Assembly: GCA_024278345.1 (NCBI GenBank)
Contig: JAJRTK010000079.1
Location: 1-22,436, forward strand
Length of the DNA: 22,436 nucleotides
Source of the DNA: a bacterium
Lineage (GTDB): Bacteria; CSSED10-310; JAJRTK01
Reading direction: 5' to 3'
Translations under genes and position numbers: made by a program
In this document: positions 1 to 10,822 of the stretch, in pieces
Layout of the letters: each line of letters starts with the position of its first letter
Position numbering within the stretch: the stretch's first letter is position 1
Notes under the pieces: model-generated
The model's database searches: none
The model's input: only the letters and a program-made list of their open reading frames with translations
What the model was told of the DNA's origin: nothing

Positions 1-153
1 CGGACGACCGCCGAGTAACGCGAGGCGTGACCCTTCGAGTCACGCAAACGTGACCCTTCGAGTCACGCAAACGTGACCCTTCGAGTCACGCAAACGTGAC
101 CCTTCGAGTCACGCAAACGTGACCCGCCGAGCGGTAGCGAGGCGTTGCCCGAA
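1..153. repeat. Tandem array of 23-bp palindromic units (array 1)
   Basis: Three perfect 23-bp units lie at 39-61, 62-84 and 85-107, followed by an 18-nt partial unit at 108-125. Each begins GTCACGCAAACGTGAC, a 6-bp stem with a CAAA loop, then CCTTCGA. Because CGTGAC and GTCACG are complementary, the stem can also form across the CCTTCGA linker, so the array is nested in two registers. A hybrid first unit at 15-38 (GTAACGCGAGGCGTGAC plus linker) resembles the units near 5476. The edges, CGGACGACCGCCGAG on the left and GAGCGGTAGCGAGGCG on the right, recur at the edges of that other array. The window may cut off its left side. There are no unique spacers, so it is not CRISPR. Function unknown. 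Confidence 0.85.
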
Positions 154-250
154 ACCTTGCCACTTCACAATCCTCGAAGTGTCCCGTTTTGCGTGGATGC
201 CCGCCGACCACCGATGACCGGTACTCGATCATGGACTTTGCCTGGAACAA

Positions 251-5219: not shown

Positions 5220-5341
5220 CAGGGCATGGAGGAAAATTCCGAAAACGTCACACCGGAAGATAGGCAAGGCACTGCAGTTGAACCGATTCTTCGCCATAAT
5301 CCTCATGGAGACCAATCGACCACCCCGGAAGTATGAAAGAA

Positions 5342-5592
5342 ACGACGCGGAGCGTCGTACATAAACGTGGGTCCAGGGAGCGAGCTCCCTGGTGGGTGCA
5401 GGGCAAAGCCCTGCCAGGGGACCGGGGACGGAGTCCCCGGACGACCGCCGAGCGGAGCGAGGCGTGACCCGCCAGGTAACGCGCGGCGTGACCCGCTGGG
5501 TAACGCGCGGCGTGACCCGCTGGGTAACGCGCGGCGTGACCCGCTGGGTAACGCGCGGCGTGACCCGCTGAGCGGAGCGAGGCGTGGCCCGC
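5342..5592. repeat. Hairpin string plus 24-bp tandem array (array 2)
   Basis: Four perfect inverted repeats follow each other: ACGACGC/GCGTCGT with loop GGA at 5342-5358, CCAGGGAG/CTCCCTGG with loop CGAG at 5373-5392, GCAGGGC/GCCCTGC with loop AAA at 5398-5414, and CCGGGGAC/GTCCCCGG with loop GGA at 5422-5440. They lead into an edge module CGGACGACCGCCGAG, then four units GTAACGCGCGGCGTGAC + CCGCTGG starting at 5476, 5500, 5524 and 5548, and a closing edge GAGCGGAGCGAGGCG. Each unit is a near-palindrome with one mismatch in a 7-bp stem. The edge modules recur in the array at 1-153. The element fills most of the gap between two divergent genes. It has no unique spacers and no coding potential that I believe. 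Confidence 0.85.
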
Positions 5593-5645
5593 AATCTAAG
5601 AAGACAATGATCTGCTTTGCGTGTACTTTCACGGTAATCCGTTGC

Positions 5646-5657: not shown

Positions 5658-7631
5658 ATGAGAAAAAAAATCTTCGTGACCGGTGGGACCGGCTTCATCG
5701 GCCGGGGTCTTGTCCGGGCGCTGTTGAGCCGAGGGATCCAGCTCTTCCTGCTGGTCCGGCCCAACTCCATGGAGCGCCATGGGCATCTGTTGGCCGAATT
5801 CCGCCACCAGGCAGGCGGGGCCTCCTCCTCCCTGGAAATCGTCCAAGGGGATCTTTGCGGGGACCTTGGGCATGTTCGCTCGTCGTTGCCATACGATCTC
5901 GACGCCGTCTTCCATCTGGCGGCCCTCTACGATTTGGGAGCCACAAGGGAGCGGCTCATGGAGGTCAATGTCGAGGGAACCCGGAAACTGCTGAACCTCC
6001 TTCGGGAATTGGAGTTTGGGGGGACGCTCCACTATGTCAGCTCCGTGGCCGTGGCGGGAGACCACCAGGGAAGGTTTACCGAGGAGATGTTCCAGTGCGG
6101 CCAGAAGTTTCAGCACCCGTACAACCGGAGCAAGTTCGAGGCGGAAAAACTGGTGCGCCGGATCGCGGATGTTCCCGTCCGGATTTACCGGCCATCGGCT
6201 GTCGTTGGGAACAGCATGACCGGAGAATCCCCCAGACTCGATGGTCCGACGGTCTTGTTCCCCATCCTGGAGAAGCTGAGGCGTTGGCTGCCTCCCTCGG
6301 CTCCCCTGGTGGCTTTCCCCCTGGGGGGCCGCCTGAACATGGTTCCCGTGGATTTCGTCGTGGCGGCCATGGACCGGATTGCGCACCTGCCGGGCCTGGA
6401 CGGGAAGACCTTTCACATCGTGGACCCCCGACCCCTCCCCACGGAAAAGAGTCTGACAGCACTCCTGGAGGCCACCGGCGGCCCGAGGATCCGGTGGGTG
6501 CTTCCGGCAGATCCCGCCCTCTTGTTTCCGGGAATTGCCGACACCATCAGGGAATCGGGTGCCGCACGTATGCTGCTTCACCAGATCCTGGCCGGAGAGG
6601 GAATTCCCCCCTCGATCCTGGACGCCAGAGTGGACGGAGCCCGGTTCCGGTGCGCCAATACCGTGGCCGCCCTGGAGGGGAGCGGGATCCAGTGCCCCCC
6701 CTTGCCCGACTACGTGGACCGGTTGTGGCGCTACTACGAAGAACACCTCTCCCCGGCCAGGAACGTGGATGCGCGTCGCGGGCAGGCCCTTTCCGGGCGG
6801 CGGATCGTGATCACGGGTGCATCCTCCGGAATCGGCCGCGCCACCGCCCACTTGTGCGCGCGGCACGGAGCCAGGCTGATCCTGGTGGCCCGCCGGAAGG
6901 AAAAGCTCCAGGAGCTTTGCCAAGAGATCGAGCCTCTGGCCGGGACCGCAACCGCCTATCCTTGTGACTTGTCCGACGGTGACGCCTGCGACGAGCTGAT
7001 CTCCGCCGTCCTGGACCGGGAGGGCGGTATCGACGTCCTTTTCAACAACGCCGGCCACTCCATCCGCCGCCCCCTGGATCAGTCGTTCCACCGCTTCCAC
7101 GATTTTGAGCGCCTCATGCGGATCAATTACTTCCCCGCGGTCCGTCTGACGTTGGGGTTTCTGCCCGGAATGGTGGAGCGGCGAGACGGACATATCCTCC
7201 ACTCTTCCACCATGGGAACCATGGGGCCATCGCCCAGGTTTGCCGCCTATCTTCCAACCAAATGCGCCTTCGACGCCTTCTGTGACTGCCTGGCCGCGGA
7301 ATACGCCGACAGGGGGATCGCCGCCACGCGTCTCCATTTTCCCCTGGTCCGGACGGAGATGATCAGCCCAACCGCCGAGTATGCCGGCGCCAAGGCCATG
7401 TCGCCCAAGGAAGCCGCGGAGATCGTCATCGACGCCATCGTAGAACGTCCTCGCCAGGTCCTGCCACCCCTGGGCTACGTCATGCGTCTTTCCGCCCTGT
7501 TCGGCCCAAGGTTCTACAGCCAGGTCCTGAACCTGCTCCACCACCTTTGGCCTGCCGGTGAAGACCTCCATCCCGAACTCGAGCCCGACAGGAACCTGGC
7601 CCGCCTTCTCTTTCCGGCCCCGATCATCTGA
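5658..7631 (+). CDS. Alcohol-forming fatty acyl-CoA reductase, two fused SDR domains
   Basis: The 657-residue product matches in length and order the bifunctional Marinobacter fatty acyl-CoA/ACP reductase (Maqu_2507 type), which converts acyl-CoA to fatty alcohol with NADPH. The N-terminal extended SDR domain (about 1-370) has TGGTGFIG at 8-15 and Tyr155/Lys159 in HPYNRSK. The C-terminal classical SDR domain (about 378-657) has TGASSGIG at 386-393, a NNAG motif followed by SIRR, and Tyr531/Lys535. In the studied relatives the C-terminal domain makes the aldehyde and the N-terminal domain reduces it to the alcohol. The usual catalytic serine position is Thr518, preceded by Ser517. A GGAGG ribosome binding site precedes the ATG. 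The gene stands alone between repeat regions, with no wax synthase visible, so a role in wax ester or lipid alcohol formation is inferred. A hypothetical paralogue acting on another aldehyde is possible. Confidence 0.88.
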   Translation: MRKKIFVTGGTGFIGRGLVRALLSRGIQLFLLVRPNSMERHGHLLAEFRHQAGGASSSLEIVQGDLCGDLGHVRSSLPYDLDAVFHLAALYDLGATRERLMEVNVEGTRKLLNLLRELEFGGTLHYVSSVAVAGDHQGRFTEEMFQCGQKFQHPYNRSKFEAEKLVRRIADVPVRIYRPSAVVGNSMTGESPRLDGPTVLFPILEKLRRWLPPSAPLVAFPLGGRLNMVPVDFVVAAMDRIAHLPGLDGKTFHIVDPRPLPTEKSLTALLEATGGPRIRWVLPADPALLFPGIADTIRESGAARMLLHQILAGEGIPPSILDARVDGARFRCANTVAALEGSGIQCPPLPDYVDRLWRYYEEHLSPARNVDARRGQALSGRRIVITGASSGIGRATAHLCARHGARLILVARRKEKLQELCQEIEPLAGTATAYPCDLSDGDACDELISAVLDREGGIDVLFNNAGHSIRRPLDQSFHRFHDFERLMRINYFPAVRLTLGFLPGMVERRDGHILHSSTMGTMGPSPRFAAYLPTKCAFDAFCDCLAAEYADRGIAATRLHFPLVRTEMISPTAEYAGAKAMSPKEAAEIVIDAIVERPRQVLPPLGYVMRLSALFGPRFYSQVLNLLHHLWPAGEDLHPELEPDRNLARLLFPAPII

Positions 7632-9700: not shown

Positions 9701-10459
9701 ATGAGTCTTGTGGAATCCCCCCCGATGGCGGCGATCCCGGAAACGATCGTCTATCCCGACACGGATGGTCAACCCATGGCGGAAAATGACTGGCAGCGTG
9801 AACTGATCGTGGACTGCATCCAGGTACTCGAAGAGCATTACCGAGACCGACAAGATGTCTATGTCTCCGGCGATCTCCTGGTCTACTACCAGGAAGGAGA
9901 GCCGCGGCTGCGGGTGGCTCCGGACGTTCTGGTCGTCCACGGCGTGGAGAAAAAGAAACGGAAGAGCTACTTCATCTGGAGGGAAGAGAAAGCGCTGGAC
10001 CTGGTCATCGAGATTGCGTCCGACTCCACGTGGCTCCGTGATTTGACAGAGAAGTCGGTTCTCTACCATGAAATCGGGGTTCAGGAGTATTTCCTGTTCG
10101 ACAGCACCGGTGAGCGTTTTGGGCCGCTCCTTGCGATGAAGCGAAGGAATGGGCGCTTGGAGGAGGAAGAGCCGGATGAGCGTGGGCGGATCCTGAGCGA
10201 GGTCCTCGGCCTGGAGCTGGGCGAATCTGAAGGTCGGTTACGGTTTTATCTTCCGGGAGAGGCGAAGCCATTGCCAACCCCCGGGGAACAGGCGAAGCAA
10301 GAGGCGGCCCGAGCGGAGCGGGAAGCGGCCCGAGCAGAGCGGGAAGCGGCCCGAGCAGAGCGGGAAGCGGCCCGAGCAGCTATTGCAGAGGCTGAAAGAA
10401 ACCGCGCCTTGGAGCGGATCCGGGAGCTGGAAGCTCAGTTGACCGCCTTGCGGGGATAA
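9701..10459 (+). CDS. Uma2 family putative endonuclease with coiled-coil tail
   Basis: The 252-residue product belongs to the Uma2/DUF820 family, which has a PD-(D/E)XK nuclease-like fold and no firmly known role. Visible family features are APDVLVV with Pro74-Asp75, the LDLVIEIASDST segment with Glu104, Lys118, and HEIGVQEYFLFD near 123-134. Residues about 200-227 are a heptad repeat of EAARAER encoded by near-identical 21-bp DNA repeats, followed by a coiled coil to the end. AGGAGGG at 9686-9692, 8 nt before the ATG, decides the start. Such genes are often present in many copies per genome and are frequently exchanged. The tandem heptads probably change in number between strains by slippage. 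No partner gene is evident. Confidence 0.88.
   Translation: MSLVESPPMAAIPETIVYPDTDGQPMAENDWQRELIVDCIQVLEEHYRDRQDVYVSGDLLVYYQEGEPRLRVAPDVLVVHGVEKKKRKSYFIWREEKALDLVIEIASDSTWLRDLTEKSVLYHEIGVQEYFLFDSTGERFGPLLAMKRRNGRLEEEEPDERGRILSEVLGLELGESEGRLRFYLPGEAKPLPTPGEQAKQEAARAEREAARAEREAARAEREAARAAIAEAERNRALERIRELEAQLTALRG
10299..10380 (+). repeat. 21-bp tandem repeats within the Uma2 gene
   Basis: Roughly four copies of a GCGGCCCGAGC(A/G)GAGCGGGAA unit encode the EAARAER heptads. Copies are nearly identical at the DNA level, which suggests recent expansion by slippage. Confidence 0.8.
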
Positions 10460-10567: not shown

Positions 10568-10822
10568 GGACGCTTCTTTGGCCTCGGTCATGGTACCGGC
10601 CACCCGAAAAAAGCGCGCGGCGCACAAAGAGGGGTCCAGGGAGCTGGCTCCCTGGCGTGGGTCTGATGCCGAGCGTAAGCGAGACGCGGCACAAGGGGCC
10701 GCAGCGCAAGCTCCCAGCGGAGGTCCGGAGGCGGAGCCTCCGCCGGGTTCCAGGGCTGGAAGCCCCGGGGCGGCGTCTGAAATCTGAACCGTGGCCGGTA
10801 CCATGACCGAGGACGCTTCTTT
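10568..10822. mobile_element. MITE-like foldback element with 22-bp terminal inverted repeats
   Basis: The 22 bp at 10582-10603 (CCTCGGTCATGGTACCGGCC plus AC) is the exact reverse complement of 10791-10812. The 12-bp direct repeat GGACGCTTCTTT lies at 10568-10579 and 10811-10822, on either side, overlapping the right inverted repeat by 2 bp, as expected for a 10-12 bp target duplication. The interior has no credible gene but several hairpins: CCAGGGAG/CTCCCTGG at 10636-10655 and GGAGGC/GCCTCC at 10727-10741. The first hairpin stem is the same as one at 5373. The structure suggests a non-autonomous element moved by an unknown transposase, or a large foldback made by recombination. It sits 70 bp upstream of the radical SAM gene. 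Confidence 0.6.
10730..10765 (-). repeat. 36-bp module, copy 1
   Basis: This 36-bp segment, inside the foldback element, is the exact reverse complement of 15862-15897. It contains two small palindromes (around CCAGGGCTGGAAGCCC and GGCGGAGCCTCCGCC). Confidence 0.85.

What the first reader, a model, noticed from the sequence alone, without database searches (positions are those of the whole stretch)
5342..5592. Second array with the same edges but a different homogenised unit
The two arrays, about 5.4 kb apart, share edge modules (CGGACGACCGCCGAG and GAGCGG(T)AGCGAGGCG) yet have internal units that differ in sequence and length (23 versus 24 bp). The hybrid first unit of array 1 resembles the array 2 unit. 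This looks like a modular repeat family in which edges are fixed and the core is locally amplified, a pattern not explained by REP, CRISPR or MITE models that I know.
Basis: partly seen in the sequence, partly recalled or inferred. Interest (0 to 1): 0.65.

Follow-up and report, generated by a model that had tools for sequence, protein, structure and literature searches.

The report
Modular MITE carrying amplified hairpin repeats
The array is the expandable middle of a small, hairpin-rich, non-coding mobile element that exists in hundreds of copies in this bacterium; fixed ends around a variable number of core units is a known design (pneumococcal BOX elements), so this is a new family of a known kind.

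Summary
Arrays 1 and 2 share both edge modules and carry homogenised 23-bp and 24-bp units. The edge module occurs 134 times in the genome (reversed control 2).

The arrays are the middle of compact non-autonomous mobile elements. Array 1 lies in an element type with 23-bp terminal inverted repeats (GGGTATCCACGYAAGGCGGGACA, about 490 sites); 14 of 34 complete copies have perfect 8-bp target duplications (chance 0.2%). Array 2 lies in a second type with unrelated ends, flanked by TA (window 5297-5636).

The shared core is a chain of GC-rich hairpins. The 23/24-bp difference is the loop (AAA against GNGG) of one stem-loop module. Most copies hold one unit and a few hold up to six. Most 24-bp arrays repeat their own local variant; the 23-bp unit is identical at many loci. 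That fits slippage between short direct repeats.

The closest precedent is BOX elements (boxA-boxBn-boxC; in S. suis two end types around the same boxB). No mobilising transposase with matching ends was found. A RAYT-like gene exists but is not linked to the arrays. No host function is shown.

The parts
1..202 (+). E1: right part of a TIRa-type MITE, cut by the contig end; holds array 1
   Evidence: Ends in TGTCCCGTTTTGCGTGGATGCCC (180-202), the TIRa right terminus; the window is contig C546 from base 1
1..15 (+). Left edge module CGGACGACCGCCGAG of array 1
   Evidence: 134 genome copies at <=1 mismatch, reversed control 2
26..125 (+). Array 1: 23-bp unit CGTGACCCTTCGAGTCACGCAAA, 4.3 copies
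   Evidence: the same unit in tandem at many other loci
129..144 (+). Right edge module GAGCGGTAGCGAGGCG of array 1
   Evidence: sequence
180..202 (-). TIRa right terminal inverted repeat
   Evidence: about 490 sites in the genome, reversed control 0
5297..5636 (+). E2: element holding array 2, including flanking TA at 5297-5298 and 5635-5636 (the flanking direct repeat can also be read as TAATCC)
   Evidence: left end (7 hits) and right end (10 hits) each recur in other copies; core 143 hits
5342..5358 (+). Hairpin 1 ACGACGC-GGA-GCGTCGT
   Evidence: fold
5373..5392 (+). Hairpin 2 CCAGGGAG-CGAG-CTCCCTGG
   Evidence: fold
5398..5414 (+). Hairpin 3 GCAGGGC-AAA-GCCCTGC
   Evidence: fold
5422..5440 (+). 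Hairpin 4 CCGGGGAC-GGA-GTCCCCGG
   Evidence: fold
5438..5452 (+). Left edge module CGGACGACCGCCGAG of array 2
5457..5570 (+). Array 2: 24-bp stem-loop units (CGTGACCCGCTGGGTAACGCGCGG), near-identical
   Evidence: this unit variant is private to this locus among those fetched
5570..5584 (+). Right edge module GAGCGGAGCGAGGCG
   Evidence: sequence
5593..5634 (+). Right end module of E2 (...GCGTGTACTTTCACGG)
   Evidence: 10 hits, one of them 44/44 identical (L152)
10580..10812 (+). E3: third, related hairpin element with TIR GGCCTCGGTCATGGTACCGGCCAC
   Evidence: flanked by the direct repeat ACGCTTCTTT at 10570-10579 and 10813-10822

Best explanation
Array 2 is the variable-copy core of a small non-autonomous mobile element, one of several related GC-rich, hairpin-chain MITE families that have spread through this genome. 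A transposase supplied in trans recognises the ends and moves the element (inferred; no matching transposase found). Inside, short direct repeats (GACC[C]GCCGAG/TTCGAG) flank one stem-loop module; slippage or unequal exchange between them adds or removes whole stem-loop units, which homogenises units at a locus (inferred from unit patterns). Core modules are also found inside elements with different ends, so recombination or gene conversion between copies probably swaps cores (inferred). Shown here: the modular structure, high copy number, TIRs with 8-bp duplications for the array-1 element type, TA-bounded insertions for elements with array-2-like ends, and local homogenisation. The most likely biological role is selfish DNA; effects on neighbouring transcripts are possible but untested.
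For: TIRa about 490 sites genome-wide, 0 in the reversed control. 34 complete elements with both flanks: 14 with an 8/8 and 17 with a >=7/8 target duplication, against 0.18% in mismatched pairs. Nested insertions: six elements with array-2-like ends sit at TA in the right TIR of TIRa elements, with host sequence continuing on both sides; a third family interrupts an ISL3 transposase ORF with duplication GTTCAAGCG. Same core under different ends: E2 left end 7 hits, right end 10, core 143. Left and right end subtypes are linked (MI 1.16, p=0.0002), whereas the GTTGC hairpin and the unit type show no clear link to the ends (p 0.07-0.27). Copy number: 58 loci, 36 with one unit, 12 with two, 10 with 3-6; within-array identity 97% against 81% between; in most 24-bp arrays the amplified unit equals that element's own edge variant (array 2 itself is an exception, its edges are CGGAGCGAGG and its units TAACGCGCGG). 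Strong folding, RNA z -4.0 for E2, DNA z -4.9 for the hairpin chain. Only 4 of 35 TIRa elements lie inside predicted genes, where 77% of random points would.
Against: No transposase with matching ends was found: IS1595, IS630, ISL3, DDE_Tnp_1 and IS256 searches gave few fragments, and the IS1595-like and ISL3-like copies have other apparent ends. The ends of E2 itself are not significant inverted repeats (local score equal to shuffles), and TA is too short to prove a duplication there. A third core feature (the stem variant of hairpin 4, called 'hairpin3' in the script) is linked to the ends (p 0.0002-0.007), so core exchange is not free. Classes were hand-made and n is 34. 17 of 34 TIRa elements lack a recognisable TSD. 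The MAG is 88% complete in 550 contigs, and only 23% of it was read in full.
Confidence: 0.85

Rival explanations
1. A REP/BIME system: hairpins dispersed and tandemly amplified by a RAYT (Y1 tyrosine transposase).
For: The genome holds one RAYT-like gene (L279; NF047646 67 bits, Y1_Tnp 30 bits). BIMEs are mosaic, hairpin-rich and sometimes tandem (PMC3733652).
Against: GTAG tag absent from E2. TIRs with 8-bp target duplications do not fit RAYT/REP. Core hairpin modules were not found at the RAYT locus at <=4 mismatches, beyond weak edge-like matches and one nearby TIRa site. The RAYT score is below the NCBIfam cut-off.
Confidence: 0.05
2. A functional regulatory or RNA-processing element kept by selection (attenuator, terminator, RNase site) whose repeat number tunes neighbouring genes, such as the reductase gene whose ORF starts at 5658 just after E2.
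For: Very stable folding; E2 ends about 21 bp before the start codon of the 5658 ORF; intergenic bias. BOX elements can alter expression (PMC3049150).
Against: No terminator-like tract or promoter match pointing at the 5658 gene. Elements occur in all intergenic gap types and in some predicted ORFs. No match in 40 other genomes, 7 of them of the same phylum.
Confidence: 0.08
3. Independent cassette mobility: the core hairpin chain is itself a mobile or recombinational cassette captured by different transposon types.
For: Core under unrelated ends; unit type and GTTGC hairpin not clearly linked to ends.
Against: No fixed core boundary or target duplication for the core alone was seen; one core stem variant is linked to the ends. 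Ordinary gene conversion explains the same data.
Confidence: 0.1

Closest known systems
BOX elements of Streptococcus pneumoniae and S. suis (boxA-boxBn-boxC; boxE-boxBn-boxF), PMC3049150
   Same: Composite short repeat with fixed end modules and a variable number of tandem core modules; in S. suis two different end types enclose the same core module; nested insertions among repeat families; folded transcripts; patchy distribution.
   Different: Sequence not compared (no BOX sequence was at hand); units 23-24 bp (boxB is longer, own knowledge); GC-rich (E2 66%, core 73%); a chain of four further hairpins sits between the left end and the array; the host belongs to a different, poorly sampled phylum.
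Bacterial MITEs in general (e.g. RUP, Nezha, MITEAba12)
   Same: Short, non-coding, TIRs, target duplications, high copy, nested insertions.
   Different: GC-rich rather than AT-rich; internal minisatellite; partner insertion sequence not found; E2-type ends are not clear inverted repeats.
BIME/REP elements with RAYT
   Same: Mosaic of short palindromes, intergenic, tandem amplification.
   Different: No GTAG tag in E2; defined TIRs and 8-bp TSDs in the TIRa type; no linked RAYT.

Membership tests
MITE (array-1 / TIRa type) | Terminal inverted repeats | tested here: met
   23-bp TIR, about 490 sites; 35 facing pairs giving elements of 99-411 bp in 1.39 Mb
MITE (array-1 / TIRa type) | Target site duplication | tested here: met
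   14/34 perfect 8-bp against 0.18% null
MITE (array-1 / TIRa type) | Ends match an autonomous insertion sequence | tested here: inconclusive
   five transposase families searched; no copy shown to have TIRa ends; assembly incomplete
MITE (array-2 / E2 type) | Terminal inverted repeats | tested here: not met
   local alignment score of the two ends equals shuffles
MITE (array-2 / E2 type) | Target site duplication | tested here: inconclusive
   flanked by TA, or TAATCC; six nested elements with similar ends sit at TA in known host sequence
BOX element | Fixed end modules with variable number of tandem core modules | tested here: met
   58 loci with 1-6 units; homogenised
BOX element | Sequence homology to pneumococcal boxA/B/C | not tested
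   BOX sequences were not at hand
REP/BIME with RAYT | GTAG (or CGTC) tag beside the palindrome | tested here: not met
   no GTAG in E2; CGTC in hairpin 1 is part of the stem (sequence)
REP/BIME with RAYT | RAYT gene linked to the repeats | tested here: not met
   one RAYT-like gene in the genome; no core hairpin module found beside it
CRISPR | Unique spacers between repeats | tested here: not met
   units abut with no spacers

The most novel reading that the evidence does not exclude
A hairpin-chain core with an expandable stem-loop minisatellite is passed between at least two transposon end types that use different targets (8-bp duplication and TA), so one passenger core is spread by two unrelated transposition systems in the same genome.
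Probability: 0.35. Interest if true: 0.55.

Novelty: new member of a known kind. Interest (0 to 1): 0.33.

Why it matters
It shows that the BOX-like design (fixed ends, variable tandem core, same core under two kinds of ends) exists far outside streptococci in an unrelated GC-rich genome, which suggests convergent routes to modular MITEs. It also helps to explain why this assembly is broken into 550 contigs: about half of the contig ends sampled carry these modules (64 of 132, against 4 of 264 interior windows).

Tried and rejected
Presence elsewhere: no match in 40 other genomes, phages or viral contigs (one exact pattern); plasmid matches were weak and local. No Rfam family. The ISL3 transposase in C5 was considered as the autonomous partner because a TIRa right end follows it: rejected, since the copy appears to end in GGCTCTTCGCCATC, typical of ISL3 from my own knowledge, and to be inserted inside a MITE. 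IS1595-like copies were considered because that family makes 8-bp duplications (own knowledge): their shared boundary GGCTCTATATGCG differs. The idea that ORFs read in frame through elements was not pursued: start sites may lie downstream. The organism could not be named: the one named genome scan gave only distant homologues.

Full report
What was reported. Two arrays 5.3 kb apart share edge modules but have different homogenised units. This is correct, and the modules are far above chance: 134 genome copies of the left edge against 2 for the reversed control.

Where it lies. The window is the whole of contig C546 of a 6.06-Mb, 550-contig genome, 88% complete. I read 1.39 Mb of it. A search of 40 other genomes, 7 of them from the same phylum and the rest more distant, found no match to the array-2 stretch.

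True boundaries, array 1. Copies of the edge module sit in complete elements. The commonest type has the inverted repeat GGGTATCCACGYAAGGCGGGACA at both ends, about 490 sites genome-wide and none in the reversed control. Of 34 elements with both flanks, 14 have a perfect 8-bp duplication of the flanking DNA and 17 have at least 7 of 8, against 0.18% for mismatched flanks. Array 1 is the right part of such an element, cut by the contig end; its right terminus is at 180-202.

True boundaries, array 2. It lies in a different element, 5297-5636. Its left end has 7 hits and its right end 10 in the sequence read, while the core between has 143. It is flanked by TA on both sides (or TAATCC). Its two ends are not significant inverted repeats. 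Six elements with similar ends are nested in the right terminus of array-1-type elements, always at TA, with the host sequence continuing on both sides. So mobility of this end type is supported, but its duplication is only two bases and could also be read as part of the element.

Third family. A related element is at 10580-10812, with inverted ends and the direct repeat ACGCTTCTTT on both sides. In C5 a copy interrupts an ISL3 transposase ORF, duplicating GTTCAAGCG.

Anatomy of the core. From left: hairpin 1 (5342-5358), hairpin 2 (5373-5392), hairpin 3 (5398-5414), hairpin 4 (5422-5440), left edge, stem-loop units, right edge. E2 as RNA folds better than all 100 shuffles (z -4.0). Each unit is a linker CGTGACCC-NNYGRG plus a stem-loop. 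The 24-bp unit has a GNGG-type loop and the 23-bp unit an AAA loop, so the length difference is in the loop of one homologous module (sequence comparison of the units).

How the array grows. Among 58 loci, 36 have one unit, 12 have two and 10 have three to six. Identity is 97% within arrays and 81% between. In most 24-bp arrays the repeated unit equals the element's own edge variant; array 2 is an exception, as its edges carry CGGAGCGAGG and its units TAACGCGCGG. The 23-bp unit instead is identical at many loci. The direct repeats GACC(C)GCCGAG flank the stem-loop at the unit spacing. Local slippage or unequal exchange is the simplest reading; it is inferred.

Module exchange. In 34 elements left and right end subtypes are linked (p 0.0002), while the optional GTTGC hairpin and the unit type are not clearly linked to either end (p 0.07-0.27). 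The stem variant of the hairpin before the left edge is linked (p 0.007 and 0.0002), so exchange is partial. Classes were hand-made and the test is exploratory.

Location. Four of 35 elements lie inside predicted genes, where 77% of random points fall (rough gene caller). This fits either insertion preference or purging of harmful insertions.

Mobiliser. Searches for five DDE transposase families found few, mostly fragmentary copies, none shown to have the ends of these elements. One RAYT-like gene exists without core hairpin modules beside it. The partner is unknown and may be in the unassembled part.

Comparison with the known. This works like BOX. Sequence descent from BOX was not tested. 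It is a MITE by its defining features for the array-1 type, except that the partner is unknown; for the array-2 type one feature was not met and one is inconclusive, so that type is described as MITE-like.

Verdict. A real, well-formed repeat family in this genome, ordinary in kind. The notable part is one core under two end types with different targets.

Noticed in passing
window 10580-10812: Third hairpin element with TIR GGCCTCGGTCATGGTACCGGCCAC and a perfect 10-base flanking direct repeat; its modules are among the most abundant repeats in the sample.
   Followed up: partly
L165 about 341-537: A copy of the third family interrupts an ISL3-family transposase ORF, with target duplication GTTCAAGCG.
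   Followed up: yes
L279 1012-1737: RAYT-like gene (below NCBIfam cut-off) whose ORF contains a duplicated GSEPAPTQPDTTDRA stretch, possibly a repeat inserted in frame.
   Followed up: partly
L143, L156, L230, L252, L255, L261: Six nested insertions at the same TA in the right terminus of TIRa elements, from two lengths of inserted element (about 104 and 165 bp): a preferred target.
   Followed up: partly
contig ends of the genome: 64 of 132 contig ends carry these modules against 4 of 264 interior windows: the assembly breaks at the repeats.
   Followed up: yes
L145 4011-4179; L157 5790-6021: Elements lying within long open frames that read through them upstream of TPR or methyltransferase domains.
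   Followed up: no
L157, L165, L182, L257: A segment of a few hundred bases, GGTCCAGCAACTGTCTTGAATGTCAA..., replaces or interrupts hairpin 2 in some elements.
   Followed up: no
window 10304-10379: In-frame 21-bp tandem repeat near the 3' end of an ORF with a Uma2 domain.
   Followed up: no
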